From Nostoc sp. FACHB-152 (GTDB taxonomy: Bacteria > Cyanobacteriota > Cyanobacteriia > Cyanobacteriales > Nostocaceae): DNA of 64,000 nucleotides. Shown here piece after piece: positions 17,342 through 36,523 of the stretch. The stretch is from contig NZ_JACJRV010000015.1 in NCBI RefSeq assembly GCF_014697475.1, forward strand, positions 1-64,000, given 5' to 3'. The stretch's first letter is position 1, and every line of letters starts with the position of its first letter. The translations under genes and the position numbers were made by a program. Under the pieces are notes generated by a model. The model ran no database searches, had not been told where the DNA came from, and saw only the letters and a list, made by a program, of their open reading frames with translations.

Positions 17342-17797
17342 ATGTTACTATTACTCTTCTACATAAATAATCAGCGTTATGCTCTAGCTAGTCAGCAGGT
17401 TATAGAAGTTTTACCACTTGTTAGCCTCAATATCCTTCCTCATGCACCTGATTATTTTGCGGGTGTGTTTAACTATCGAGGACAGGTTGTTCCTGTATTA
17501 GATTTATGTCAGTTGATGTCGGGTAAACCTTGCTCTCAACACTTAAGTTCTCGAATTATTCTGGTGAACTATTGGGGAGGGGATGTTGCGAAGTCTTCTG
17601 TTGTTGGTTTAATGGCAGAGCGAGTTGTAGAAACATTGCATAAATCAAATACAGAGTTAGTAGATACCAATGTCCAGATAGGTGCAGCCCCATATCTGGG
17701 TAAAATGATTTTAGACGAGCAAGGCATGATTCAATGTCTGCGGATTGAATATTTGTTATCAGAGTCCGAACAGGTGTATCTTTTGCCAGCAAACTAA
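17342..17797 (+). CDS. CheW-like adaptor (WspB-like)
   Basis: A 151-residue single CheW domain that would couple chemoreceptor and CheA kinase. Typical features: LFYINNQRYALASQQVIEVL at the N-terminus and GVFNYRGQVVPVLDL (about 41-55), where the RGQ/P-V-x-D core is diagnostic. The start ATG at 17342 is preceded by GAGGTGG. It is the first gene of a same-strand cluster and lies 32 bases before the CheR-TPR gene, the order expected for a Wsp-type locus (WspB then WspC), although here the receptor comes third. Confidence 0.9.
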   Translation: MLLLLFYINNQRYALASQQVIEVLPLVSLNILPHAPDYFAGVFNYRGQVVPVLDLCQLMSGKPCSQHLSSRIILVNYWGGDVAKSSVVGLMAERVVETLHKSNTELVDTNVQIGAAPYLGKMILDEQGMIQCLRIEYLLSESEQVYLLPAN

Positions 17798-17829
17798 ATA
17801 ATGCTTTTGGAGCATCCATCGTTGAACAA

Positions 17830-19044
17830 ATGACATATTCTGATGGTGAAGCTTTACTGAGACTAAAAATTGGTTTAGATGCAAGTTCAATAGGCTCGGC
17901 TAACATTGCTAGAGCGATTGACCAGAGGATGGCAGATAGCAAAATTACAGATATAGCCTGCTATTTGGAACGGGTGCAGGAATCTACATCTGAATGGGAA
18001 GCATTAATTGATAATGTGATTGTTCCGGAAACTTGGTTTTTTCGGGAGCGAGAATCATTTAAGTTTTTGCAAAAATATATTCAATCGGAATGGTTGAAAA
18101 ATCGCACTACTAAAGTATTGCGGATTTTAAGCGTACCATGTTCTACTGGGGAAGAGCCTTATTCAATTGCGATCGCTCTTTTAGAAGCTGGGTTAAATCC
18201 AGCTAACTTTCACATTGATGCTATTGATATTAGTAAAAAATGTTTGTTAGCCGCTCAAAAAGCAATTTACGACAAATATTCTTTTCGTAGCAATACTTTA
18301 TCTTTTCAAGAACGCTATTTTCAACCAACCCAGACGGGATATAAACTGTGTGAACAGATCAGAAATTTAGTGCATTTTCGCCAAGCTAATTTAGCAGCTC
18401 CCGATTTTATGGTTGCTGCCGCATCCTATGATGTTGTCTTTTGCCGCAACTTGTTAATTTATTTTGACCGCAGTACCAAAGAACGCACTATCCGCACCTT
18501 AGAACGATTAATTGTTCCGGATGGTTTGTTATTTGTGGGTCATGCAGAAACAGGTTTATTGCTAAATTCGCGCTTTACATTAGTGCCGCACTCTATGGCA
18601 TTTGCCTATCGCAAGACAAATGTTTCTCGAACTGTAGCAAAATATAGTAGCCCAGGCGATCGCAAAAAGCACCGTTTCATTCAACCAAGACAGCGCATCG
18701 CTCACCATCCCAAATCGCAGCAGCAACAAATTCAGCAGACAAGCTTGCTAGATACTGCTAAAACTTTAGCTGACCAAGGCTCTTTGCAGCAAGCTTGCCA
18801 ACTTTGCCAAGACTATCTCAACAAAAATTTGGTGAACGTTGAAGCCTATGTACTGCTTGGTCAAGTGCAACAAGCGATGGGACAAAATGAACAAGCTGCA
18901 ACATCCTTTCAAAAAGCAATTTATCTGCAACCAAATCACGAAGAAGCTTTAATTCATTTAGCATTGCTGCGAGAACATCAGGGCGACATGACAAATGCTC
19001 ATTTGCTGTGGCAACGCATTCACCGACTTCATCATAAACAATAA
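17830..19044 (+). CDS. CheR methyltransferase with C-terminal TPR (WspC-like)
   Basis: This would methylate glutamates of the neighbouring chemoreceptor using S-adenosylmethionine. The family hallmark VPETWFFRE is at residues 65-73, the SAM-binding SVPCSTGEEPYS at 101-112 and the VFCRNLLIYF block near 200. A linker rich in Gln (about 270-310) leads into tetratricopeptide-like repeats (about 315-395, e.g. VEAYVLLGQVQQAMGQNEQA). A CheR with a TPR tail is characteristic of WspC rather than classical CheR. It follows the CheW gene closely. The TPR part probably docks the enzyme on the receptor array. Confidence 0.92.
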   Translation: MTYSDGEALLRLKIGLDASSIGSANIARAIDQRMADSKITDIACYLERVQESTSEWEALIDNVIVPETWFFRERESFKFLQKYIQSEWLKNRTTKVLRILSVPCSTGEEPYSIAIALLEAGLNPANFHIDAIDISKKCLLAAQKAIYDKYSFRSNTLSFQERYFQPTQTGYKLCEQIRNLVHFRQANLAAPDFMVAAASYDVVFCRNLLIYFDRSTKERTIRTLERLIVPDGLLFVGHAETGLLLNSRFTLVPHSMAFAYRKTNVSRTVAKYSSPGDRKKHRFIQPRQRIAHHPKSQQQQIQQTSLLDTAKTLADQGSLQQACQLCQDYLNKNLVNVEAYVLLGQVQQAMGQNEQAATSFQKAIYLQPNHEEALIHLALLREHQGDMTNAHLLWQRIHRLHHKQ

Positions 19045-19075
19045 ATATGATTTGTGGTGTAATAGATATTTCTGC

Positions 19076-19179
19076 TATAGGACTCATATTTAATTTTTGA
19101 AAAAATCAGTACATTTCCATCTGCTATCTTTCCTATTGCCTTACTACACCTGTATGTTCAGTAATCAAACCGGATTCCT
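19076..19179 (-). repeat. MITE-like repeat, family A, copy 3 (inverted)
   Basis: Begins TATAGGACTCATATTTAATT and ends with the complement of AGGAATCCGGTTTGATTAC, matching the copy at 4647-4773 in reverse. It sits between the CheR and receptor genes, inside the 313-base spacer of the cluster. The remainder, up to 19357, shows no gene. Confidence 0.6.
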
Positions 19180-19357
19180 CCAGGTAACAAATTATTAATT
19201 TTCATATCTTTTACTTACAACTTGTTTGTCTGCTTGCTGACATGGGAAAGCTTGCACTTACAAGATATTTTGTATGTCTTGATTATCTTTCTATAGCTAG
19301 AGAATTTCGAGAAGTTAATTAAATTCTGTTTGCATCATTTGAGGACAAGGTAAAGAT

Positions 19358-21034
19358 ATGCGGCAAGGGCTAAGACTGAACCAATTTGTAGTAGCTGGAT
19401 GTGGGCTAATAGTAATATTAGCTAGTATTACAGCTTTTATTACTAAAAAAACTAATGAAGAATTAGTAGATAATGCCAATTTAGTCACCAAAAATTACCA
19501 AATAAAAGGAAACTTAAACCAATTAGAAAAGCTTTTAGTAGATTCAGAAACTGGGCAGCGAGGATTTATTATTACCAATAGACCAGAATATTTAGAACCT
19601 TTTAATAAAGCAAAAGAACAGATAATTGCAATTTTTGATGAACTAGAGTTAGAGTTAAAAAATGACGATTTAAAAATAGCTAGTTTAAATAAAATTCAAG
19701 AATTATCAGAACAAAAAAATAAAATATCTGAAGAAACCATCCAACTTAAAAAGTTAAATAAACAACAAGAGTTACTAAATTACTTTTATGCCAACAAAGG
19801 CAAAAATGTAATGGATAATCTTAGAAAAGAAATTGAAAGAATGCTGCTAGTTGAAGATGAGGAGTTAAAAGAAAGACAACAGCAAGTTAATCAACTGCAA
19901 AATTTTTCTAACTTAGTTATTTGGTCAACTTATGTAATGCTTGTAATAACGGTAATAGCAGTTTGTCTTGCTATTATTCTGATTCCAAGCCGAGCTTTGA
20001 GCAGTTCTTTACAAAATGCTTTTAATTTAGCAGAAAAGGTGTCTGATGGTGATTTAACAGTTGAGGTAGAAGCAACTTCCAATGATGTGATTGGTAAGCT
20101 GATGGTGACTTTGAAAAACATGGCCCAAAACCTTAGTAATCTGATCCGAAAAGTACAACAATCTGGTATTCAGGCAACTTCTTCAGCAACGCAAATAGCA
20201 GCATCTGGTAAACAATTAGAAGCTACACTAACAGAACAAGTAGCTTCAACAAATGAAGTTGCAGCCGCCGCGAAAGAAATTTCTGCTACTTCCAGAGAAC
20301 TTGTAAAAACAATGGAAGAAGTTGCTGCTATGTCGCAAAGTACAACAATTGCAGCTAGCGATAGTCAAAAAGATTTGTTGCGGATGGAAGCTACCATGCG
20401 TCAATTAGCAGAAGCGACCAACTCAATTGCAGCTAGGCTAGGAGTAATTAGCGAAAAAGCTAACAATATTAATAATATTGTGGTCACCATCACTAAAGTC
20501 GCAGACCAAACAAATTTGCTGTCTTTGAATGCAGCTATTGAAGCCGAAAAAGCTGGGGAATATGGCTTAGGTTTTGCTGTAGTGGCTAGGGAAATTCGCC
20601 GTTTAGCAGACCAAACCGCAGTCGCTACTTTAGATATTGAACAGATGGTTAAACAAATGCAATCTTCTGTGTCTACAGGCGTAATGGAAATGGATAAGTT
20701 CGCCACAGAAGTAGGACGCAGTGTAGAAGATGTGGCTAATATTAGCACTCAGGTAGGTCAAATTATCGAACAAGTACAAGAGTTATCACCTCGATTTGAA
20801 TCGGTTAATCAAGGTATGGAAACTCAATCTCAAGGCGCGTTGCAAATTAGCGAGGCGATGACTCAGTTAAGCAATACTTCTGCTCAAACGGCTGGTTCTT
20901 TAAGAGAAATTAATAATGCTATTTCTCAACTTAGTCAAGTTGCTCAAGTTTTGCGACAAGAGATTTCTCGCTTCAAACTCAAAGGTGAAAACTCAATTTC
21001 TAATTTTGCTGAATCTAGCTCATCACATTTGTAA
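19358..21034 (+). CDS. Methyl-accepting chemotaxis protein with CHASE3-type sensor (WspA-like)
   Basis: 558 residues. A first membrane helix (about 9-27) is followed by an extracytoplasmic helical domain with the CHASE3 signature DSETGQRGFIITNRPEYL (about 60-77), then a second helix (about 191-213), a HAMP domain (about 213-265) and a long coiled-coil signalling domain. The hairpin tip reads DQTNLLSLNAAIEAEKAGE, followed by GFAVVAREIRRLADQT, the highly conserved CheA/CheW contact region. CHASE3-like sensors are also found in receptors that respond to surface contact or envelope stress. It sits in the middle of the Wsp-like cluster and is the presumed input of the pathway. Confidence 0.93.
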   Translation: MRQGLRLNQFVVAGCGLIVILASITAFITKKTNEELVDNANLVTKNYQIKGNLNQLEKLLVDSETGQRGFIITNRPEYLEPFNKAKEQIIAIFDELELELKNDDLKIASLNKIQELSEQKNKISEETIQLKKLNKQQELLNYFYANKGKNVMDNLRKEIERMLLVEDEELKERQQQVNQLQNFSNLVIWSTYVMLVITVIAVCLAIILIPSRALSSSLQNAFNLAEKVSDGDLTVEVEATSNDVIGKLMVTLKNMAQNLSNLIRKVQQSGIQATSSATQIAASGKQLEATLTEQVASTNEVAAAAKEISATSRELVKTMEEVAAMSQSTTIAASDSQKDLLRMEATMRQLAEATNSIAARLGVISEKANNINNIVVTITKVADQTNLLSLNAAIEAEKAGEYGLGFAVVAREIRRLADQTAVATLDIEQMVKQMQSSVSTGVMEMDKFATEVGRSVEDVANISTQVGQIIEQVQELSPRFESVNQGMETQSQGALQISEAMTQLSNTSAQTAGSLREINNAISQLSQVAQVLRQEISRFKLKGENSISNFAESSSSHL

Positions 21035-21037
21035 AAT

Positions 21038-21110
21038 ATAATAATTTGGTTTGATTACTGAGCATACTTGTTTACTCAGGCAATAGGCAATAGCAAAGAA
21101 GACAGCTAAG
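21038..21110 (+). repeat. MITE-like repeat, family A, partial copy
   Basis: Contains ATTTGGTTTGATTACTGA and the CAATAGG heptamers of family A in the same order as at 4650-4716, but the right terminal repeat is missing. It lies directly after the receptor stop codon. Confidence 0.5.
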
Positions 21111-21243
21111 AATTCCTGGATGTTTTTATAATATTTACAAGCCAGGATAATCTATTAATCTATCGAAAAATAATACATTAAAAATGCAAGCCGAAAGTTT
21201 AAATTATAAATCTTTGATTTATTCAAATTATTAATTAGCTGCC

Positions 21244-21936
21244 ATGAATACTACTGATTATATCAACCAAGAGTATTGTTACAAAATCATCGGGATTGGC
21301 GGCGATCGCTCTTGTCAAGAGTTAACGAATTTTATTCATTGTCGTAATTGTCCTGTTTACTCAAAGATTGGACGCAATTTACTTGAACGCACTGTACCAG
21401 AAAATTATCGCCATGAGTGGAGTAAGTTATTTATAGAACAAAGACGCGAGTCTGAGAATTTAACCACCACAGCAACTTTAACAGTAGTTATATTTCGTTT
21501 GCAGCGAGAATGGCTAGCGTTGTCTACAGGAGTTTTTCAAGAAACTATATCTCCTAGTTTGATTCATACCGTACCCCATCGTAGTAACCAAATATTACGG
21601 GGATTGGTTAATATTCGGGGCGAATTACAATTGTGTATCTCGTTAACCCATCTGCTGAATTTAGAAATTGCTGACACCACAGTAGAAGCTTTCAGCCCTA
21701 TAGTATATCCCCGCATGGTAGTAGTAGAAAAAGGCGGTAGTGTTTGGGTATTTCCTGTAGATGAACTCTACGGTGTACAGCGATTTCATCAACATGAATT
21801 ACGAGATACACCAAATAGTATGACGGCGACAACTCAAAACTTCACCAAAGGATTTTTTTATTGGCAGGATAAAAGTCTGAGCTATTTGGATGAAGAATTA
21901 TTATTCACCACTTTAAATAGGAAGGTATGGCGATGA
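21244..21936 (+). CDS. CheW-like adaptor with Cys-rich N-terminus (WspD-like)
   Basis: 230 residues. The C-terminal two thirds form a CheW domain (VVIFRLQREWLALSTGVFQE, then GLVNIRGELQLCISL). The N-terminal about 75 residues hold four cysteines, C12, C24, C33 and C36, in the pattern YCYKIIGIGGDRSC...HCRNCPVYS. This matches, from memory, the N-terminus of Pseudomonas WspD, so it is a strong marker of a Wsp-type system. The cysteine set could bind a metal or cofactor; that is inference. Its stop overlaps the next gene's ATG (ATGA at 21933), so the two are translationally coupled. Confidence 0.9.
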   Translation: MNTTDYINQEYCYKIIGIGGDRSCQELTNFIHCRNCPVYSKIGRNLLERTVPENYRHEWSKLFIEQRRESENLTTTATLTVVIFRLQREWLALSTGVFQETISPSLIHTVPHRSNQILRGLVNIRGELQLCISLTHLLNLEIADTTVEAFSPIVYPRMVVVEKGGSVWVFPVDELYGVQRFHQHELRDTPNSMTATTQNFTKGFFYWQDKSLSYLDEELLFTTLNRKVWR

Positions 21937-24206
21937 CAAAACAACCAGATTATAGCCAATTTTCCTTGCTAGATTTATTTAGCATGGAGGTGAAAACCCA
22001 GTGTGCTGTCTTAAACCATAGCCTGTTGGTACTAGAAACTCAATCCCACTCCCAGGAAGAATTAGCAGCTTTAATGCGTGCAGCACATTCTATTAAAGGT
22101 GCAGCCAGAATTGTCGAACTAGATTCTGTTGTCACCCTGGCGCATGGGATGGAAGACTGCTTTGTAGCAGCGCAGGCGGAAAAAATTCGGCTAACTGCGG
22201 CTGATATTGATGTGCTGCTGGCGGCTGTAGATATGTTGCTGCATATCGGCCAAGCTTGTGAAGGTAACTCTAATCCTCAATTTCCAGATGCAGCCAGCAT
22301 TCAATATTTAGTAACTGCGATCGCTAATATTGGCAATTCTCCAGCTGTCAGTCAACCACTACCAGTAATTTTAGAACCAACCTCTAAAGAATCACCTTGG
22401 GTTATGCCGCCATCTCAGGTTTTTAACTCAGGGGAAAAACCCGAACCTGTACAAAATCGAGTTGTGCGGGTAGGGGCAGAAAATCTCAACTGCTTGATGG
22501 GATTAGCTGGAGAGTCGTTGGTTGAGGCCAAGTGGTTGGAAAATTTTACCGACTCGCTATTAAAATTAAAAACTACTCACACACAGTTATTTGGCTTATT
22601 AGAAGGATTACAAGAACTATTAGGTAATAAGCATTCTCGACATTTGATAGACCGTCAGATACAAGAACAAATGAGTGCGGTAAGTCAAACAGCTAGTGAA
22701 TGCCGCCAGCTATTAGGCGATCGCCATAATGAACTCCAGTTATATTGTCAGCGATCGACTAACCTTGCAGACCGCCTATATCGGCAAGTCATCGCCACTC
22801 ACATGAGTCCCTTTGGCGAAGGCGGACAAGGCTTTCCTCGCATGGTGCGGGACATGGCTAGACAATTAGATAAACGCATCAAACTCGAAATTATTGGCAA
22901 ATCCACCCTAGTAGACAGGGACATTCTCGAACGGTTAGAAGCACCTTTAACTCATCTTCTGCGTAACGCCATAGACCACGGTATCGAGACACCCCAAGAA
23001 CGTTTAGCCGCAGGTAAACCCGAAACCGGCACAATTCGGATCGAAGTTGTGCATCGTGCCGGAATGTTATTAATTACCGTGTCAGATGATGGTCGCGGAA
23101 TAAATATAGAATTTTTGCGTCAAGAGATTGTCAATAAAAACCTGACTACTCCAGAAATGGCAGCAAAACTCACTGAAGCCGAATTAATGGATTTCTTATT
23201 TTTACCTGGATTTTCCACAGCCAAGACAGTTACAGAAATTTCTGGTCGGGGCGTAGGTTTGGATGTGGCACACAGCACAGTCCGGGAAGTTGGCGGCAAT
23301 TTACGGGCGGTTTCTCAGTTTGGGATGGGTATGAGCTTTTACTTACAGCTACCCCTCACACTGTCAGTATTGCGGACTCTAGTAGTTGAAATCGCTAATG
23401 AACCTTACGCCTTTGGTTTGGCACGTATTGATCAGGTGCTGATGGTTCCCAGGTCAGCAATTGTAGTGTCTGAGAATCAACCATTTTTCATGGTCAACGA
23501 CCAAGCGGTAGCATTAATTGCAGCCCATCAAGTTCTAGAATTGCCAGCGTCGGTAGGAAATTCTGAATTTTTGCCAGTGGTGATTGTGAGCGATCGCTTC
23601 AGCCGCTATGGTGTAGTTGTAGATAAATTTATTGGTGAATGCAGTTTAGTTGTTCGTCCTCTCGACCCGCGTTTAGGCAAAGTTCCCAATATCAGTGCCG
23701 CCGCGCTATTAGATGATGGTTCACCAGTGTTAATTATCGATATTGAAGATTTAGTCCGTTCCATTGCCAAACTACTTTCTAGTGGACAACTCAGCCAAGT
23801 CAATCATTCCTCTCAGCAAGAAGTTGCCAAAACTTACAAGCGTGTTTTGGTGGTAGATGATTCGATTACAGTCCGCGAAATGGAGCGTAAACTGTTAGAA
23901 AACAAGGGTTATAAAGTCGAAGTTGCAGTTAATGGAATGGATGGATGGAACGCCATCCGCAGTAGTGATTACAATTTGGTAATTACCGATATTGATATGC
24001 CGAGAATGAATGGTTTTGAATTTACCACTAAAATCAAAACCCATGACAAATTAAAGCAGACACCTGTAATTATCGTTTCTTACAAAGACCGAGAAGAAGA
24101 TAGAATTCGTGGCTTAGAAGCAGGGGCAAATTACTATCTAACTAAGAGCAGTTTTCATGATGACACTTTGTTAAACGCCGTACTCGACCTAATTGGCGAG
24201 GCGTAG
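21933..24206 (+). CDS. Hybrid CheA kinase with C-terminal receiver (WspE-like)
   Basis: Histidine kinase of the array. Domain order: Hpt with AAHSIKGAARIV (phospho-His near residue 52), dimerisation segment, ATPase domain (HLLRNAIDHGIETP as N box, SDDGRGIN, GRGVGLDV), CheW-like regulatory domain, then a receiver domain (VLVVDDSITVREMERKLLE, TDIDMPRMNGFEF with the acceptor Asp) at about residues 635-755. A CheA-REC fusion is the WspE layout. Two ATGs are possible; I chose 21933 because GAAGG at 21921-21925 is well spaced from it and it overlaps the upstream stop as ATGA, whereas 21927 is too close to that site. Confidence 0.93.
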   Translation: MTKQPDYSQFSLLDLFSMEVKTQCAVLNHSLLVLETQSHSQEELAALMRAAHSIKGAARIVELDSVVTLAHGMEDCFVAAQAEKIRLTAADIDVLLAAVDMLLHIGQACEGNSNPQFPDAASIQYLVTAIANIGNSPAVSQPLPVILEPTSKESPWVMPPSQVFNSGEKPEPVQNRVVRVGAENLNCLMGLAGESLVEAKWLENFTDSLLKLKTTHTQLFGLLEGLQELLGNKHSRHLIDRQIQEQMSAVSQTASECRQLLGDRHNELQLYCQRSTNLADRLYRQVIATHMSPFGEGGQGFPRMVRDMARQLDKRIKLEIIGKSTLVDRDILERLEAPLTHLLRNAIDHGIETPQERLAAGKPETGTIRIEVVHRAGMLLITVSDDGRGINIEFLRQEIVNKNLTTPEMAAKLTEAELMDFLFLPGFSTAKTVTEISGRGVGLDVAHSTVREVGGNLRAVSQFGMGMSFYLQLPLTLSVLRTLVVEIANEPYAFGLARIDQVLMVPRSAIVVSENQPFFMVNDQAVALIAAHQVLELPASVGNSEFLPVVIVSDRFSRYGVVVDKFIGECSLVVRPLDPRLGKVPNISAAALLDDGSPVLIIDIEDLVRSIAKLLSSGQLSQVNHSSQQEVAKTYKRVLVVDDSITVREMERKLLENKGYKVEVAVNGMDGWNAIRSSDYNLVITDIDMPRMNGFEFTTKIKTHDKLKQTPVIIVSYKDREEDRIRGLEAGANYYLTKSSFHDDTLLNAVLDLIGEA

Positions 24207-24236
24207 TGTCGTCTCAGTTGAAAGTCTTATCATGAA

Positions 24237-24305
24237 GACCGCAGAGGGTTTTGTACTTTCTGCACCTATGCCTTGAATCACAACTGATTAGTCGGATATG
24301 ATGTA
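24237..24305 (+). repeat. Dispersed repeat family B, copy 1
   Basis: Blocks GACCGCAGAGGGTTTT, CTTTCTGCAC and ACTGATTAGTCGGATATGAT occur in the same order at 38481-38579 and 57737-57812, with a partial copy at 38692-38738. It lies between the CheA and CheB genes. Confidence 0.5.
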
Positions 24306-24347
24306 AGGTTTGGAAAGGATACTACCTCTTCCAACTGGGTGCAAATG

Positions 24348-25325
24348 ATGAGAATTGCCATTGTTAACGATATGGGTATAGCCGTAGAGGTCATCCGGCG
24401 TACCATTGCCAAAATCCCAGATTATGATGTGGCTTGGGTTGCTTATGATGGCGCGGAAGCTGTCACCAAATGTGCAGTAGATACCCCCGACTTAATTTTG
24501 ATGGATGTGCTGATGCCAAATATGGATGGAGCTGAAGCCACCAAGCAAATCATGAACCAATCTCCCTGTGCAATTATGATGGTAACTGCCAGTGTTAATC
24601 GTTACGCTGGCAAAGTTTTTGAAGCAATGGCTTATGGTGCTTTAGATGCCATCAATACACCTATGGAAGGTAGTAGTGGACTACTAAAAAAAATCTCTAC
24701 TATTGCCAAATTAATTGATAAATCTCCTCGCCAAAGCATCCCAAACAAACACAATAATTTACCTTCTTTGATTGCGATTGGTGCTTCTACAGGTGGGCCG
24801 CAAGCATTAGTCAAAATTATCTCGCAATTTCCGCAAGATTTGTCTGCTGCTATAGTTATTGTGCAACATTTAGATGCTCAGTTTACTCCTAGTTTTGCCA
24901 GTTGGTTAAACGAACAAACTCCTTTGTCTGTGGAAGTAGCCAGTGCTAATTCTTACCTCCAACCAGGGAAGATTTTTCTGGCGGGGACAAATAATCATTT
25001 GGTGTTGCGTTCTAACCAAACCCTGGGCTATGAGCAAGAACCATCGGATTGTTCTTATCATCCGTCGATTGATGTCTTTTTTAAAAGTGCGGTTAAAAAC
25101 TGGGCTGGAAAAGGTGTCGGAGTCTTACTCACAGGTATGGGGCGGGATGGCGCTCAAGGTTTAAAAATGATGCGAGATGCGCGTTGGCATACCATCGCTC
25201 AAGACCGCAGCACTAGTATTATTTACGGTATGCCGAAAGCGGCGGCGGAATTGAATGCGGCTGTAGAAATTTTACCAGTTGAGGCGATCGCATCAGCTTG
25301 CGCTCACTCCTTATCAGCTTGGTAA
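24348..25325 (+). CDS. CheB-type methylesterase response regulator (WspF-like)
   Basis: 325 residues. An N-terminal receiver (MRIAIVNDMGIAVEVIRRTI, acceptor Asp in LILMDVLMPNMDG) is joined to a methylesterase domain whose catalytic Ser, His and Asp sit in IGASTGGPQA, IVQHLDAQF and LTGMGRDGAQG. It would remove methyl groups from the receptor and reset the array, opposing the CheR-TPR protein. Start choice is open: GTG 24339, ATG 24345 and ATG 24348 are all in frame; the last gives the usual MRIAIVND. It follows the CheA gene after about 140 bases that carry a repeat. Confidence 0.92.
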   Translation: MRIAIVNDMGIAVEVIRRTIAKIPDYDVAWVAYDGAEAVTKCAVDTPDLILMDVLMPNMDGAEATKQIMNQSPCAIMMVTASVNRYAGKVFEAMAYGALDAINTPMEGSSGLLKKISTIAKLIDKSPRQSIPNKHNNLPSLIAIGASTGGPQALVKIISQFPQDLSAAIVIVQHLDAQFTPSFASWLNEQTPLSVEVASANSYLQPGKIFLAGTNNHLVLRSNQTLGYEQEPSDCSYHPSIDVFFKSAVKNWAGKGVGVLLTGMGRDGAQGLKMMRDARWHTIAQDRSTSIIYGMPKAAAELNAAVEILPVEAIASACAHSLSAW

Positions 25326-25567
25326 TAAAATGTGTTTTTATTACATAAGAATATCGTAAAATTACTTATTTTTTCTTGTTTGGTTTCTTCCGGATATTAA
25401 TTATTAGAAAAATTACTAATAATCTAGTTCAATAAAATCAGAATATATATTATTTAAATGTGGCAGATATACTGAATTTTTACAAAATAATACAAAAATA
25501 GAAAAGTTTTAAAAGCAAGATAATATTGTATTAATTAAATTTTTTATTAAATTAATGCAATAGAACA

Positions 25568-26941
25568 ATGCAAGTAGAAACTCTTACACAATTAACAAAT
25601 ACGCAAAAGATATTACCTAATTATATGGCTGCAAAAGTGCCTGAATCTATGTCCGCTTTAGGAAATGTAGATTCAGATCAGGCCAGGGTAATATTAATTG
25701 ACGACCAAGTAATTATTGGTGAAGCAGTTTGCAGACTGCTCTCTACTGCTTCAGATATTTCCTTTCATTATATAAATGATCCGACCCAAGCAATCCAAAA
25801 GGCGATCGCATTTTCGCCAACGGTAATTCTTCTAGATATGGTTATGCCAGATTTAGATGGAATCATGCTGTTGCGCTGGTTTCGTTCTCACCCCGCAACT
25901 CGTGACATTCCTATTGTCATGCTATCTAGTAAAGAAGAAGCAAAATTAAAAGCAGATGCCTTTTCTGAAGGTGCAAATGACTATCTAATTAAGTTACCCG
26001 ACCCAATTGAGTTGATTGCTCGGATTCGCTATCATTCTAAAGCCTACAATAACCTTAAAGCCCTCACCAACGCCACCATTACTGCTCAACTACAAACACA
26101 GAAATTAGAACATACACTCCGGCAATTACAAACAACACAAGTACAATTAGTTCAGACAGAAAAAATGTCGGGTTTAGGGCGAATGGTTGCAGGTTTAGCC
26201 CACGAAATTAATAACCCGCTAAACTTTATTAATGGTAATTATAAATATATAAATAGCTATATTGAATCTTTAGTAGAATTAATTAAACTTTATCAGCAAG
26301 AGCATCCAGAATTAACAGATGCGCTGCAAGAAAAAATTGCAGATATTAATCTGGAATTTATTTTAGATGATATACATAAAGTTCTCGGCTCGATGCAACT
26401 AGGTACTGAGCGTATTAGCGAAATAGTTTTATCATTAAGAAACTTTTCTCGGTTAGACCAAGCTGGCAAAAAAAACGTTAATATCCACGATGGAATTGAA
26501 AGTACCTTATTACTCTTAAAACATCGCCTCAGGCAGGATATTCAAATTATTAAGGAGTATGGTAATTTACCACAAATTGAATGTTATCCTGCTGACTTGA
26601 ATCAAGTATTCATGAATATTTTAAACAATGCGATCGATGCTGTTTTAGAACCACAAAATAAATCTCAAGAAAAACAAATTGTAATTAAAACTGAAATTAC
26701 TGCTTCGCAAATAGCCAAAATTATTATCAGTGATAACGGAGTGGGCATTCATCCAGAAATCCAGCCTAAAATATTTGATCCCTTCTTTACCACTAAACCA
26801 GTTAATAAAGGAACTGGCTTAGGATTATCAATTAGCTATCAAATCATTGAAGATCATCAGGGACACATTAGTTTAAAATCCGCTCCAGGTCAAGGTACAG
26901 AATTTATCATTGAGATTCCGGTTAAATTAAATAAAGAATAA
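25568..26941 (+). CDS. WspR-like receiver fused to a histidine kinase (Wsp output protein)
   Basis: 457 residues. The receiver (about 35-170) contains ILIDDQVIIGEAVCRLL, the acceptor Asp in ILLDMVMPDLDG, and KLPDPIELIARIRYHSKAYN. These are, from memory, the distinctive features of the WspR receiver (DDQxMIGEAV, KLPDxIELIARIRYHS). In WspR a GGDEF diguanylate cyclase follows. Here a coiled linker (about 170-195) leads into a HisKA domain (GRMVAGLAHEINNPLNFING, phospho-His near 215) and an ATPase domain with N box NQVFMNILNNAIDAV, SDNGVGI, DPFFTTKP and GTGLGLSISYQ. It lies at the end of the cluster, where wspR would be, so it is probably the phosphorylation target of the CheA kinase with phosphorelay output. 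Confidence 0.9.
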   Translation: MQVETLTQLTNTQKILPNYMAAKVPESMSALGNVDSDQARVILIDDQVIIGEAVCRLLSTASDISFHYINDPTQAIQKAIAFSPTVILLDMVMPDLDGIMLLRWFRSHPATRDIPIVMLSSKEEAKLKADAFSEGANDYLIKLPDPIELIARIRYHSKAYNNLKALTNATITAQLQTQKLEHTLRQLQTTQVQLVQTEKMSGLGRMVAGLAHEINNPLNFINGNYKYINSYIESLVELIKLYQQEHPELTDALQEKIADINLEFILDDIHKVLGSMQLGTERISEIVLSLRNFSRLDQAGKKNVNIHDGIESTLLLLKHRLRQDIQIIKEYGNLPQIECYPADLNQVFMNILNNAIDAVLEPQNKSQEKQIVIKTEITASQIAKIIISDNGVGIHPEIQPKIFDPFFTTKPVNKGTGLGLSISYQIIEDHQGHISLKSAPGQGTEFIIEIPVKLNKE

Positions 26942-26996: not shown

Positions 26997-27660
26997 TTGC
27001 CTGACTCTGAGGCAATTAAAACTCACTTTTTTAGTGCTATCCGTGCCTTCACACAACTAGAATTAATGCGAACCAAGGAGTTAATTGAAAACTGGTATGA
27101 AGTCCAGAGAAATTTGTCTCTTCAGGTGGCTCGTGACTTCATTCTGGAACATCTTGAACAAAAGATGGGCTTGATTACACATAGTCAGATTCCTGTCAAT
27201 GCGTACGTTCTGATCATGAGGAAAGATGCGGGCGTTGATGGTGACGCGCAACGCATCAGCCAGTTAGTTTGGATGATTTTCCTCAAAGTCTTTGATGCTC
27301 GTGAAGAAGAACGAAATTTACGAGAAAATTCTTAAAGATTTGCAGAGTGCGGGAAATGCCGGAGAATATTATACTCCCCGTGCGGTGACAAAGTTCATTG
27401 TAGATAGAATCAAGCCGCAATTAGGCGAAATTGTATTTGATCCAGCTTGCGGTACAGGTGGCTTTTTAACAGCAGCTATTGATTACATTCGCCAACATTT
27501 TCAAAGTGCTGATGTTCCAGAAATTCTGCAACAGACGATTCGCGGGACTGAGAAAAAGCCGTTACCTTTTAACCTTTGCGTGACGAATCTGATTTTACAT
27601 GGTATTGATGTGCCATCAGCAGAACATGATAATACTTTGGCACGACCATTGCGCGATTGA
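26997..27660 (+). pseudogene. Broken type I restriction-modification methylase (hsdM) remnant
   Basis: Two frames carry parts of one HsdM. The first (to 27335) includes RKDAGVDGDAQRISQLVWMI and FLKVFDAREEE, typical of the N-terminal methylase region. The second (from about 27304) includes NEIYEKILKDLQSAGNAGEY, YTPRAVTKFIVDRI and the SAM-binding FDPACGTGGFL. The join at about 27300 is out of frame and lacks roughly 100 residues normally found between these parts, so an internal deletion is likely. The frame stops at 27660, before the catalytic NPPF/NPPY motif. The methylase is therefore dead. The first 55 residues, starting at a TTG, are of unclear origin. Confidence 0.8.
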
Positions 27661-27735
27661 AGCATTGGAGAGAGACGAGTGATAGAAAAATGCGGTTAAA
27701 ATTGATTTATATTCCCTAGATAAAAGGAATTAAAT

Positions 27736-27951
27736 ATGCTAAATGCAATTGAATTTCAAGCAAAGATTCAAAATGGTTTAATTCAGATTCCTGATGAGTA
27801 CAAACAAGAACTCGGTGAAGGAGATGATATTAAGGTAATTGTTTTGGTAAAGCAAAAGTCATCTCGAAAAAGAGACATAATTGATGAATTGACAGAGAAC
27901 CCTGTGCAGGTGGATGGATTTCTCAGCCGTGAAGAAATTTACAATCGCTAA
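27736..27951 (+). CDS. VapB-type antitoxin (AbrB-like)
   Basis: A 71-residue protein whose N-terminal half (MLNAIEFQAKIQNGLIQIPD, EYKQELGEGDDIKVIVLV) has the swapped-hairpin DNA-binding pattern of AbrB/VapB antitoxins. A flexible, charged C-terminal tail (NPVQVDGFLSREEIYNR) is suited to wrapping the toxin. It starts 75 bases after the dead methylase and ends two bases before the toxin ATG, the classic antitoxin-first arrangement. It probably neutralises the toxin and represses the operon. Both genes are intact, unlike the restriction genes on either side. Confidence 0.82.
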   Translation: MLNAIEFQAKIQNGLIQIPDEYKQELGEGDDIKVIVLVKQKSSRKRDIIDELTENPVQVDGFLSREEIYNR

Positions 27952-27953
27952 TT

Positions 27954-28385
27954 ATGACATCTGGTGCATCATTCGTTGATACAAATGTTTGGCTTTATCG
28001 TTTGTTTGACGACCAAAAAATAGAAGTTGCAGAAAGAGAAAGAAAGCGTAATCTTGCTATTTCTATTACGGACGCTGAAGGAATAATTATCAGTACACAG
28101 GTTATCAATGAAATTTCTAGCAATTTACTGAAAAAAGCAGCCTTTAATGAGGAGCAAGTGAAAGCGGTGATTCAGTCGCTTTATCGTCGTTGCACTGTGG
28201 TAGAGTTTAACCTATCTATTTTTGAATCTGCTTCTAACCTCCGCAGTCGATTTAATTTCTCTTTTTGGGATAGTTTAATTGTTGCTTGTGCTTTAGCTGC
28301 GGGAGCAAGTATTCTCTATTCTGAAGATATGCAGGATGGGTTAGTGGTAGATAGTCAATTACAAATTGTGAATCCGTTTAAATGA
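27954..28385 (+). CDS. VapC-type PIN-domain ribonuclease toxin
   Basis: 143 residues with the full PIN acidic set: Asp9 in FVDTNVWLY, Glu53 in QVINEISSNL, Asp106 in FSFWDSLIVACA, and Asp125 in LYSEDMQDG, as needed for Mg2+-dependent RNA cleavage. VapC toxins usually cut tRNA or rRNA. It begins two bases after the antitoxin stop, so the pair is translationally coupled. Its TGA overlaps the ATG that starts the hsdS remnant (ATGA at 28382), so the pair was built into the restriction operon rather than dropped at random. No truncation is visible, so it may still be active. Confidence 0.9.
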   Translation: MTSGASFVDTNVWLYRLFDDQKIEVAERERKRNLAISITDAEGIIISTQVINEISSNLLKKAAFNEEQVKAVIQSLYRRCTVVEFNLSIFESASNLRSRFNFSFWDSLIVACALAAGASILYSEDMQDGLVVDSQLQIVNPFK

Positions 28386-28748
28386 AAGTAGATACATTTT
28401 TTCAAAATTTTGAATTGTTGACTGATGCGCATAATTCCAGCTAATATGCTAAAAATAACACTTCATCCACAAGTGAATAAAAAATTTATTTTATATTTTC
28501 TGAAAAGCCCAATATTTAAAGAACAATTAGACAAAATTGTAAAATTTACTGCACAACCTGCTTTTAACGTGACAGCTTTCAAAAAGTTGTTTTTACCTTT
28601 TCCTCCACTGGAAGAACAAAAACGGATTGTAGAGAAGTGCGATCGCCTGATGTCACTCTGCGATACCCTAGAAGCCAAATTGAAACAAGGACGAGATAGC
28701 AGTGAGAAACTGATGGAAGTCGCAGCAAAGCAAGTTTTAACAGCCTGA
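28382..28748 (+). pseudogene. Broken type I specificity subunit (hsdS) remnant
   Basis: The ATG at 28382 begins MKVDTFFQNFELLTDA, the usual start of an HsdS chain (MKVETFF-type). After about 16 codons the frame shifts and the sequence continues in another frame from 28425: MRIIPANMLKITLHPQVNKK, FNVTAFKKLFLPFPPLEEQK, RIVEKCDRLMSLCDTLEAKL, the last conserved segment and coiled coil of HsdS. Nearly all of both target recognition domains is lost. With the dead methylase and no visible hsdR this locus cannot restrict DNA. Confidence 0.8.
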
Positions 28749-34228: not shown

Positions 34229-36523
34229 TTATTCACGATTGTTAACCTGTTCTGGAATGGTGAAGTAGAAGATTGAGCCTTGACCCGGTTTTGACTCAAC
34301 CCAGATACGTCCACTGTGGCGTTCAATAATTTTCTTACAAATTGCTAAACCAATACCAGTACCTGGATACTTACTTCTACCATGCAATCGCTGAAAGATT
34401 ACAAAAACACGTTCAGCATACTGTGCTTCTAAACCAATTCCATTATCACTTACCCAGAACAACCATTCGTTGGGAGTAGGGTGTGGGAACTGGGGGGTGT
34501 GGGGTGTAGGGTGTGGGGTGTGGGGGTTAAGATACTCCTCTGCTCCTCTGCTCCCCTGCTCCTCTGCTCCCCTGCTCCCCTGCTCCCCTGCTCCCCCGCT
34601 CCCCTGCTCCCCCGCTCCCCTGCTCCTCTGCTCCTCATCTCTCCTGACTGCGCCAATATGAATCTGTGGCGGTAGTTCTCCACGGAATTTGATGGCGTTA
34701 CCAATGAGGTTTTGAAATACTTGTGTTAGTTGTATAGGATCGGCTTTGATTACAGGTAGAGGATCATAAGTAATGGTTGCACCACTATCTTCTATCGCAA
34801 ATTTTAGGTTAGCGATCGCCTGCTGTAAAATCTCTGCACAATCAACTTGAACAAAAGGTTGTCCGCGTGTAGTTACCCGTGAATAATTCAACAAATCGTT
34901 GATGAGGTTTTGCATCCGTCGCGCCCCATCTACCGCATAGTTAATAAATTGATCCGCAGTTGCATCTAGTTGGCTGTTATATTTCCGCTCTAGTAGCTGT
35001 AAATAACTTGTCACCATCCGCAACGGCTCTTGCAAATCATGGGAAGCAACATAGGCAAACTGTTCTAATTCTGAATTAGAACGTGCTAATTCTTGAGCAT
35101 GGTGGTTCGCTTTTTCTAAAAGTTGCGCCTGAGATAAAGCTATGCCAATTTGGTTGGCTATCTGTAGCAATAGTTCAGTTTCAAAGTTCTTCCAGTGGCG
35201 GGGGTGAGCGCACTGATGGGCAACTAATAAACCCCAAATTCCTTCTCGAATCAGAATTGGGACTACGAGGTTAGCCTTGACACCAAACTGTCGCAAGAAT
35301 TCTCGATGGCATTCTTGAATGTCAGCTTTTTCAATGTCGAAAATTGCACTGATGCGTCCTTGACGATATTTCTCTACGTAGTCTTGTTGAAAGCAAGGAT
35401 CAAGAATGTTTTGTCCTAAAACTACAGGCCAACCTGGTAGGACGGCTTCTTTGACTACTGTGCCTGAACCATCAGGACAAAGTCGAAAAATGAGAACTCG
35501 GTCAGCGTGCAAGAGTTTTTGGACTTCTTGAACTGTAGTTTGGAGAATGTCTTCTAATTGTAAGGATTCTCGAATTTTTAAGGTGATTTCGGCAAATAAT
35601 TGCGATCGCAAGTTCTGCCGTTTTAATTCTTCTTCTGCTTGCCTGCGTTCAGTTACATCCAGTGTCACACCGCTCATCCGCACTGGCTGATTATCTGCAT
35701 CACAGATAACAACACCACGTGCTAATATCCAATGAATACTGCCATCAGTCCAAATACAGCGATATTCTGCTTCATAATCGCCACGATTTTCTATGGCTTG
35801 TCTGACACACTCTAGAACATAAGAGCGATCGTCAGGATGAATGCATTCCAACAACTTACTATAGGTAAACTCCGTTTCTGGCAACAGACCAAAATTGATA
35901 TGGCACTGACTAGATGAAGACAATTCTTTTGTTTTGATGTCGAGTTGCCAAGAACCCAGTTTAGCAGCTTGTAATGCCAGCCTCAGTCTTTGGTCACTCT
36001 CCCGCAAGAAAGCCTCAGTTCGCTGTTTCTCGGCTAAATTCCGCCGCAATTCCAACTGGCTAATTACCTGACGAGCCAAAGCCAGCAGTGCTTCTATTTG
36101 CTGTTGATTGAGTTCTCGTGGTGATGGGTCAATTGCACAGAGTGTGCCTAATATCTGACCATCTGGAGAAATTAGCGGCACACCTGCATAAAAACGCACA
36201 TAAGGATAGCCTTTGACTACTGGATTTGTGGCATATTCTTCGTGTTCTAGTGCATCCTTGATCACCACAATATCCTTGCGTTCTAAGCAAAGATAAGATA
36301 ACCCAACACTACGAGGCATTTCTGGCACATCTATACCTAGTTTGGCTTTGAACCACTGACGGTTTTCATCAATGAAATTCACCAAAGCTATAGAAGTACC
36401 ACATATAAATGCCGCTAATTGAGCAAGATTGTCGTAAGCTTGCTCTGGTTGAGTGTCTAAAATTTGATATCGGCGTAGAGCTGCTAGCCTCGCCTGTTCA
36501 TAATTATTCGATTCTGCTGGCAT
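34229..36523 (-). CDS. Sensor kinase: GAF-PAS-GAF-HisKA-HATPase with repeat insertion
   Basis: 764 residues. Domains: GAF (about 25-155, LAQLAAFICGTSIALVNFID), PAS (about 175-295, with VTLDVTERRQAEEEL), phytochrome-type GAF (about 305-455, ILQTTVQEVQKLLHADRVLI), HisKA (FAYVASHDLQEPLRMVTSYL, phospho-His near 493), and ATPase (VFQNLIGNAIKFRG N box; SDNGIGL; TGIGLAICKKI). Between the N box and the SDNGIGL box lies an insertion of about 60 residues (about 622-684) made of repeating 'RGAGEQGS' units and a His/Pro-Thr tail. It derives from an intergenic repeat (see 34472-34650). The rest of the ATPase is intact, so activity may persist. First gene of the three-gene operon. Confidence 0.88.
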   Translation of the reverse strand: MPAESNNYEQARLAALRRYQILDTQPEQAYDNLAQLAAFICGTSIALVNFIDENRQWFKAKLGIDVPEMPRSVGLSYLCLERKDIVVIKDALEHEEYATNPVVKGYPYVRFYAGVPLISPDGQILGTLCAIDPSPRELNQQQIEALLALARQVISQLELRRNLAEKQRTEAFLRESDQRLRLALQAAKLGSWQLDIKTKELSSSSQCHINFGLLPETEFTYSKLLECIHPDDRSYVLECVRQAIENRGDYEAEYRCIWTDGSIHWILARGVVICDADNQPVRMSGVTLDVTERRQAEEELKRQNLRSQLFAEITLKIRESLQLEDILQTTVQEVQKLLHADRVLIFRLCPDGSGTVVKEAVLPGWPVVLGQNILDPCFQQDYVEKYRQGRISAIFDIEKADIQECHREFLRQFGVKANLVVPILIREGIWGLLVAHQCAHPRHWKNFETELLLQIANQIGIALSQAQLLEKANHHAQELARSNSELEQFAYVASHDLQEPLRMVTSYLQLLERKYNSQLDATADQFINYAVDGARRMQNLINDLLNYSRVTTRGQPFVQVDCAEILQQAIANLKFAIEDSGATITYDPLPVIKADPIQLTQVFQNLIGNAIKFRGELPPQIHIGAVRRDEEQRSRGAGEQGSGGAGEQGSRGAEEQGSRGAEEYLNPHTPHPTPHTPQFPHPTPNEWLFWVSDNGIGLEAQYAERVFVIFQRLHGRSKYPGTGIGLAICKKIIERHSGRIWVESKPGQGSIFYFTIPEQVNNRE
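34472..34650 (-). repeat. G-rich intergenic-type repeat inserted in a coding sequence
   Basis: On the minus strand this region is a run of GGAGCAGGGGAGCAG-type units followed by a TGGGGTGTGGG-like block. The same G-rich units occur in spacers at 45113-45140 and 62350-62440. Here they stay in frame and encode the low-complexity insertion in the sensor kinase. The insertion interrupts a normally uninterrupted stretch of the ATPase fold. Confidence 0.75.

What the first reader, a model, noticed from the sequence alone, without database searches (positions are those of the whole stretch)
25568..26941. WspR-type receiver whose output domain is a histidine kinase instead of GGDEF
The receiver carries the WspR-like stretches DDQVIIGEAV and KLPDPIELIARIRYHS and sits where wspR should be, but it is joined to HisKA and HATPase domains. 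The pathway would then end in a second kinase, i.e. a chemosensory array driving a phosphorelay instead of making c-di-GMP. I do not know of a described system of this design.
Basis: partly seen in the sequence, partly recalled or inferred. Interest (0 to 1): 0.75.

Follow-up and report, generated by a model that had tools for sequence, protein, structure and literature searches.

The report
Cyanobacterial Wsp pathway ending in kinase
A surface-sensing-type signalling operon in a cyanobacterium ends not in the usual messenger-making enzyme but in a second protein kinase, an arrangement already known from Burkholderia that cyanobacteria appear to have built independently.

Summary
The gene at 25568-26941 encodes a WspR-type receiver fused to a histidine kinase with intact motifs. 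It is the last gene of a seven-gene wsp-like operon (17342-26941). The receiver scores 152-156 bits against two solved WspR-type (REC-GGDEF) chains; the next best, PleD, scores 72. Each of the seven proteins matches a Pseudomonas wsp operon. The fusion is conserved and under purifying selection.

The novelty claim does not hold. A WspR-type receiver with a kinase output is published as WspH/WspHRR of Burkholderia cenocepacia (PMC4324302, PMC8552884). Rhodospirillum centenum CheA3-CheS3 is a biochemical precedent (PMC3868531). A cyanobacterial wsp operon with a class III cyclase in the wspR slot is also published (PMC4971617).

What I did not find in print is that the cyanobacterial kinase fusion is independent of WspH: kinase family, gene position and operon backbone differ (AU p = 3.75e-5). 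Across relatives the same receiver carries GGDEF, class III cyclase, SpoIIE phosphatase, kinase or hybrid-kinase outputs, and trees suggest at least two whole-gene replacements.

Most likely mechanism: the CheA phosphorylates Asp90, which controls a second His-Asp step to an unidentified regulator. That flow is inferred, not shown.

The parts
17342..17797 (+). CheW (WspB-like)
   Evidence: Pfam CheW 82 bits; 40% identity to CheW of Pseudomonas wsp operon L073
17830..19044 (+). CheR methyltransferase with C-terminal TPR (WspC-like)
   Evidence: Pfam CheR and TPR; 38% to L073 CheR
19358..21034 (+). MCP chemoreceptor with CHASE3 sensor (WspA-like signalling part)
   Evidence: Pfam CHASE3 and MCPsignal; 51% over residues 212-541 to L073 MCP; the sensor differs (4HB_MCP_1 in L073)
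21244..21936 (+). second CheW (WspD-like)
   Evidence: Pfam CheW; 32% to L073
21927..24206 (+). CheA-REC hybrid kinase (WspE-like): Hpt, HATPase, CheW, REC
   Evidence: Pfam; core 47%/372 bits to one Pseudomonas CheA, which by coordinates is the one in the wsp operon L073, versus 34-35% (212 and 223 bits) to the two others found; other matches in its own genome score at most 179 bits
24339..25325 (+). CheB methylesterase with receiver (WspF-like)
   Evidence: Pfam; NCBIfam CheB subfamily above cut-off; 51% to L073
25568..26941 (+). WspR-type receiver (residues ~40-155), helical stalk (~146-200), HisKA (His212) and HATPase: REC-HK output protein

Best explanation
This is a cyanobacterial Wsp-family chemosensory operon whose response regulator carries a histidine kinase in place of the diguanylate cyclase, so it is WspH-like in design but of separate origin. 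Proposed flow: the CHASE3 receptor array controls the CheA-REC kinase. CheA passes phosphate to Asp90 of the WspR-type receiver. The conserved helical stalk carries the change to the DHp/ATPase module and raises or lowers its autokinase or phosphatase activity at His212. His212 then serves a separate response regulator encoded elsewhere. Shown here: gene content, receiver type, intact catalytic residues, conservation, purifying selection and separate ancestry from WspH. Inferred: the CheA to Asp90 transfer (by homology to WspE-WspR), the sign of control, and the existence of a downstream regulator.
For: Receiver 152-156 bits to the WspR-type chains versus 72 for the next best. Each of the seven operon proteins matches a Pseudomonas wsp operon. 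The CheA is closer to the Pseudomonas CheA of the wsp operon than to any other CheA-like match in its own genome. REC, H-box and N-box residues are kept in 42 of 42 rows, and dN/dS is 0.10-0.16. The HK-type rows are one clade on the CheA+CheB tree (25 of 25, SH-aLRT 95), and 38 of 39 group on the receiver tree (support 85, not starred). Of 38 HK-type loci in the family, 35 have both CheA and CheB in the fetched stretch. The kinase half nests among 29 other kinases sampled from this genome, whereas the receivers of ten of those that are REC-HKs score at most 49.5 bits against this one. Precedents for a CheA controlling a fused kinase through its receiver: CheS3 (shown) and WspH (proposed).
Against: No phosphotransfer was tested. 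No dedicated partner regulator was found beside the gene in the window. One family locus (L182) has the REC-HK with no CheA or CheB in the 19.9 kb stretch, so the pair is not always linked. The structure model (six sequences) has mean pLDDT 68 and pTM 0.38, with residues 161-190 at 48-53 and 191-210 at 35-36, so coupling through a continuous helix is weakly supported. In CheS3 receiver phosphorylation inhibits the kinase, so the direction of control cannot be read from homology. On the kinase-domain tree three HK-type proteins (L042, L066, L069) fall outside the main 20-row clade, so the kinase may not have been gained once even in cyanobacteria.
Confidence: 0.68

Rival explanations
1. The receiver is a phosphate sink or is loaded by its own kinase; the kinase is the sensor-like input and CheA has no role in it.
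For: Fused receivers act as sinks in CheA3 and in H. pylori CheAY2 (PMC3868531 discussion). Ten other REC-HK genes sampled from this genome have non-WspR receivers, so REC-HK is a common design here; their neighbourhoods were not examined. L182 has a REC-HK with no CheA or CheB nearby.
Against: The receiver is WspR-type, and HK-type genes lie with CheA and CheB in 35 of 38 family loci. The HK label is one clade on the CheA+CheB tree.
Confidence: 0.15
2. The kinase is a decayed or structural output: the gene is kept as a scaffold and the kinase is inactive.
For: Two loci show decay (L206 truncated REC-HK with split CheB; L224 REC-HK in pieces).
Against: H212 and the N-box are intact in 42 of 42 rows and other ATP-site residues in 40-41 of 42; HK-part dN/dS is 0.08-0.15.
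Confidence: 0.05
3. Same lineage as Burkholderia WspH, spread by horizontal transfer.
For: Same design: WspR-type receiver plus kinase in a Wsp pathway. A full-length blastp joins the window protein and L259 at 27% over residues 41-437.
Against: The kinases of L259 and L260 lie on a very long branch apart from all 52 cyanobacterial kinases in the tree, and the window kinase alone gave no hit to them at E 1e-5. Their gene is upstream of the MCP, not after CheB. Their operon backbone is sister to a Burkholderia GGDEF operon (100), and holding them with the HK rows is rejected, p-AU 3.75e-5.
Confidence: 0.02
4. The REC-HK partner is the LuxR-type regulator that lies convergent to it in many relatives.
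For: It lies 0.2-1.9 kb downstream in 19 of 35 family HK-type loci with at least 3.5 kb of sequence, and within 6 kb in 0 of 24 cyclase- or SpoIIE-type loci (my count from its list).
Against: The regulator is in 215 of 217 family genomes, while 63 of 217 have the receiver. In the window's genome it is on another contig (G000:C111). Shared descent of one insertion site explains the adjacency.
Confidence: 0.1

Closest known systems
WspH / WspHRR of Burkholderia cenocepacia (PMC4324302, PMC8552884; passages seen)
   Same: WspR-type receiver joined to a histidine kinase as output of a Wsp operon; c-di-GMP levels unchanged in wsp mutants; relay to a DNA-binding regulator (RowR) proposed.
   Different: Compared through L259 and L260, which I take as WspH by position and architecture: kinase of another family, no Pfam HisKA hit; gene upstream of the MCP; operon backbone sister to a Burkholderia WspR operon. 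Separate origin.
CheA3-CheS3-CheY3 of Rhodospirillum centenum (PMC3868531; abstract and part 1 of the discussion seen)
   Same: CheA hybrid phosphorylates the N-terminal receiver of a second kinase and thereby controls it.
   Different: CheS3 has a REC1 domain, a PAS domain and a CheY3 partner. No CheS3 sequence was compared here.
Wsp operon of Phormidesmis priestleyi BC1401 (PMC4971617; passages seen)
   Same: Cyanobacterial wspB-wspC-wspA-wspD-wspE-wspF with a non-GGDEF protein in the wspR slot; same gene order as the window.
   Different: The slot holds a class III adenylate cyclase, not a kinase.
WspR of Pseudomonas
   Same: Receiver and into the stalk: 51% over residues 34-203; same operon slot.
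   Different: GGDEF output making c-di-GMP.

Membership tests
Wsp chemosensory system | Seven-gene set CheW, CheR-TPR, MCP, CheW, CheA-REC, CheB, WspR-type regulator | tested here: met
   MCP lies after CheR rather than first as in L073
Wsp chemosensory system | CheA orthologous to WspE | tested here: met
   372 bits to the Pseudomonas CheA that by coordinates lies in the wsp operon, versus 212 and 223 to the two others found; other matches in its own genome at most 179
Wsp chemosensory system | WspR-type receiver | tested here: met
Wsp chemosensory system | GGDEF output making c-di-GMP (R-system) | tested here: not met
   Pfam finds HisKA and HATPase, no GGDEF
Wsp chemosensory system | 4HB-type receptor sensor as in Pseudomonas | tested here: not met
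   CHASE3 in the window, 4HB_MCP_1 in L073
WspH (H-system) | WspR-type receiver fused to histidine kinase | tested here: met
WspH (H-system) | Kinase homologous at family level to the WspH kinase | tested here: not met
   tree; no hit of the window kinase alone to the L259/L260 kinases at E 1e-5; but full-length blastp aligns 41-437 at 27%
WspH (H-system) | Gene upstream of wspA; Burkholderia operon lineage | tested here: not met
WspH (H-system) | Downstream DNA-binding regulator (RowR) needed | not testable with these tools
   needs genetics
R. centenum Che3/CheS3 | PAS domain in the kinase protein; single-domain CheY3 partner in cluster | tested here: not met
   no PAS in Pfam scan; no single-domain receiver among the operon genes
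CheR-TPR / ACF chemosensory clusters (PMC3447774) | CheR-TPR with a multidomain regulator | tested here: met

The most novel reading that the evidence does not exclude
The Wsp array is a plug-in platform. One conserved CheA-receiver pair drives at least four output chemistries (GGDEF, class III cyclase, SpoIIE phosphatase, histidine kinase) plus a PAS-HK-REC-Hpt hybrid form. Kinases were captured independently at least twice, and in Nostocaceae the whole regulator gene was recently replaced between operons. The window is the kinase version, turning an array signal into a second phosphorelay.
Probability: 0.6. Interest if true: 0.55.

Novelty: new variant of a known kind. Interest (0 to 1): 0.42.

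Why it matters
If the same receiver surface serves four kinds of output enzyme, specificity must lie mainly in the CheA-receiver contact, and output exchange becomes a natural experiment in rewiring. It also cautions against annotating cyanobacterial Wsp operons as c-di-GMP systems: by script labels, 0 of 67 places in the family census carry GGDEF.

Tried and rejected
Rejected: ordinary REC-HK beside the operon by chance (receiver type). Rejected: GGDEF partner downstream. Rejected: common origin with WspH. Weak: the convergent LuxR regulator as partner, since it is nearly universal in the family.

Led nowhere: promoter- and terminator-like sites are below and at the shuffled expectation (19 against 30.6; 7 against 7.3). 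A Burkholderiaceae draw of 200 genomes gave 23 hits, all GGDEF in my script, no WspH. NCBIfam gives the LuxR regulator no name above cut-off among the 25 families shown. The structure model is too weak for a fold search, so none was run.

Limits: the receiver tree has 124 columns and 61 of 117 inner branches open. Trees are 'quick' with SH-aLRT only. The receiver tree used 120 of 195 receivers, after a hand-picked list and removal of identical rows. The CheA+CheB tree used 80 of 104 after dropping rows at or above 94% identity; the 104 also came from a hand-picked list, five rows were skipped because CheB lay over 3 kb away, and rows lacking CheA or CheB were left out. Output labels come from phmmer to reference domains; Pfam was run on 33 of the 195 receiver proteins. 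The 195 hold some contigs twice. Supplementary tables of the papers could not be read, so HK-type cyanobacterial cases may already be listed in Table S2 of PMC3447774. Papers listed but not opened include PMC7063779 and PMC8846402.

Full report
What is there. The window is from an 8.6 Mb draft genome that I take to be a Nostocales cyanobacterium: its nearest named hits for the receiver are Nostoc and Calothrix. Seven co-directional genes at 17342-26941 encode CheW, CheR-TPR, a CHASE3 MCP, CheW, CheA-REC, CheB with a receiver, and the REC-HK of the finding. Against a named Pseudomonas wsp locus (L073), each of the seven window proteins has a match: CheW 40%, CheR 38%, MCP 51% over the signalling part, CheW 32%, CheA 47%, CheB 51%, regulator 51% over residues 34-203. 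The CheA core scores 372 bits against the Pseudomonas CheA that by coordinates is the one in L073. It scores 212 and 223 against the two other Pseudomonas matches, and at most 179 against the six other matches in its own genome.

The receiver. Two WspR-type chains (3i5a, 3bre) score 155.7 and 152.2 bits, PleD 72, an unnamed receiver 57, PhoB 55. The window genome has one such receiver at E <= 1e-25, and 23 of 386 cyanobacterial genomes have at least one. In the family, 63 of 217 genomes have one at E <= 1e-30.

The kinase. About forty matches in the same genome that cover just the kinase half are 48-58% identical to it; the later ones fall lower. The receivers of ten other REC-HK genes sampled from the same genome score at most 49.5 bits against this one. 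So the protein is a WspR receiver joined to a locally common kinase type. In 42 HK-type proteins the phosphorylation and ATP-binding residues are invariant or nearly so, and dN/dS is 0.10-0.16 for the whole gene and 0.02-0.11 for residues 161-200. The structure model shows helices 146-156 and 158-196 between receiver and DHp, but at low confidence (mean pLDDT 68, pTM 0.38).

What relatives carry in the slot. Among 25 places in the phylum search (window included), by script annotation with Pfam on ten of them: 8 REC-HK, 1 PAS-HK-REC-Hpt hybrid, 12 class III cyclase, 4 SpoIIE phosphatase, 0 GGDEF. In the family census, 67 places in 63 of 217 genomes: 38 HK, 19 cyclase, 9 SpoIIE, 1 broken, 0 GGDEF. 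Three of the 38 HK loci lack CheA or CheB or both in the stretch; one of these, L182, has neither. Among 80 named loci (the best 80 of 568 confirmed) one cyanobacterium, Pseudanabaena sp. 'Roaring Creek' (L064), does have GGDEF in the slot. Several deltaproteobacterial and other MAG loci have SpoIIE. In 43 of 43 HK-type loci with at least 3.5 kb downstream no GGDEF gene was detected within 6 kb.

Ancestry. On the CheA+CheB tree (80 rows, 851 columns) the 25 HK rows are one side of a branch (SH-aLRT 95). The two Burkholderia operons that I take as WspH are sister to a Burkholderia GGDEF operon (100) inside the proteobacterial set. Holding HK and WspH rows together costs 387 log units, p-AU 3.75e-5. 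On the receiver tree 38 of 39 HK rows group at 85 with the GGDEF of L064 as neighbour, and L042 falls outside; the WspH receivers sit among proteobacterial GGDEF ones. The WspH kinases stand on a very long branch away from the 52 cyanobacterial kinases, and their gene lies upstream of the MCP, not after CheB. Against this, a full-length blastp still aligns the window protein with L259 at 27% over 41-437. I conclude that the kinase output was gained at least twice. On the kinase tree L042, L066 and L069 fall outside the main 20-row clade (97), so there may be more events; this is unresolved.

Regulator replacement. L178 (SpoIIE) and L193 (cyclase) are sisters on the backbone tree (100), and L190 (SpoIIE) sits inside a cyclase clade (100). 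Yet the best receiver matches of L178 and L190 are SpoIIE-type receivers at 87-100% identity, and the SpoIIE receivers of this group form one clade (98). This is the pattern of replacement of the whole regulator gene.

What is known. WspHRR: PMC4324302 (passages) suggests that the DGC module was replaced by a histidine kinase and proposes phosphotransfer to a DNA-binding regulator; PMC8552884 (passages) reports unchanged c-di-GMP in its wsp mutants. CheS3: PMC3868531 (abstract and part 1 of the discussion). PMC3447774 (passages and section 9): about 40% of regulators in CheR-TPR clusters have a kinase module, with cyclases and phosphatases also listed. PMC4971617 (passages): a cyanobacterial wsp operon with a class III cyclase in the wspR slot. 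I found no paper on a cyanobacterial Wsp operon with a kinase output in searches of an open-licence library. That is weak evidence of absence.

Partner. A LuxR-type regulator lies convergent 0.2-1.9 kb downstream in 19 of 35 family HK-type loci with room, and within 6 kb in 0 of 24 others. But it is in 215 of 217 family genomes and on another contig in the window's genome, so it is only a lead. It may be Rre1; that name is recalled and comes from no call.

Noticed in passing
window 26997-28748: Directly downstream lie pieces of a type I restriction system (a weak HsdM_N match below cut-off and an N6_Mtase fragment; an HsdS-like end by eye) with a PIN-domain-like ORF at 27954-28385 by eye. It looks broken; described only.
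   Followed up: partly
window 34229-36523 (-): A histidine kinase ORF carries a run of near-identical repeats (RGAGEQGS-like) inside its ATPase part, by eye.
   Followed up: no
L249 and L259 (NZ_CP156686.1): One Burkholderia stagnalis replicon holds both a WspR (GGDEF) operon and a WspH-type operon, against the statement in PMC8552884 that organisms have only one H- or R-system.
   Followed up: partly
L178, L190 versus L193, L194: Regulator genes of the Wsp operon appear to have been replaced whole between operons in the window's family.
   Followed up: partly
L072, L133: Methylococcales-type MAGs have a WspR-GGDEF operon plus a second, divergent WspR-type receiver with SpoIIE about 9 kb away: possibly two outputs for one CheA.
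   Followed up: no
L206, L224: Decayed copies: split CheB with truncated REC-HK, and a REC-HK in pieces.
   Followed up: no
L066: Laspinema locus with two WspR-type receiver proteins facing each other (hybrid kinase and REC-HK) and no CheA or CheB detected in the stretch held.
   Followed up: no
L182, L184: A REC-HK (L182) and a REC-cyclase (L184) with no CheA or CheB detected in the 19.9 kb stretch: orphan Wsp regulators.
   Followed up: no
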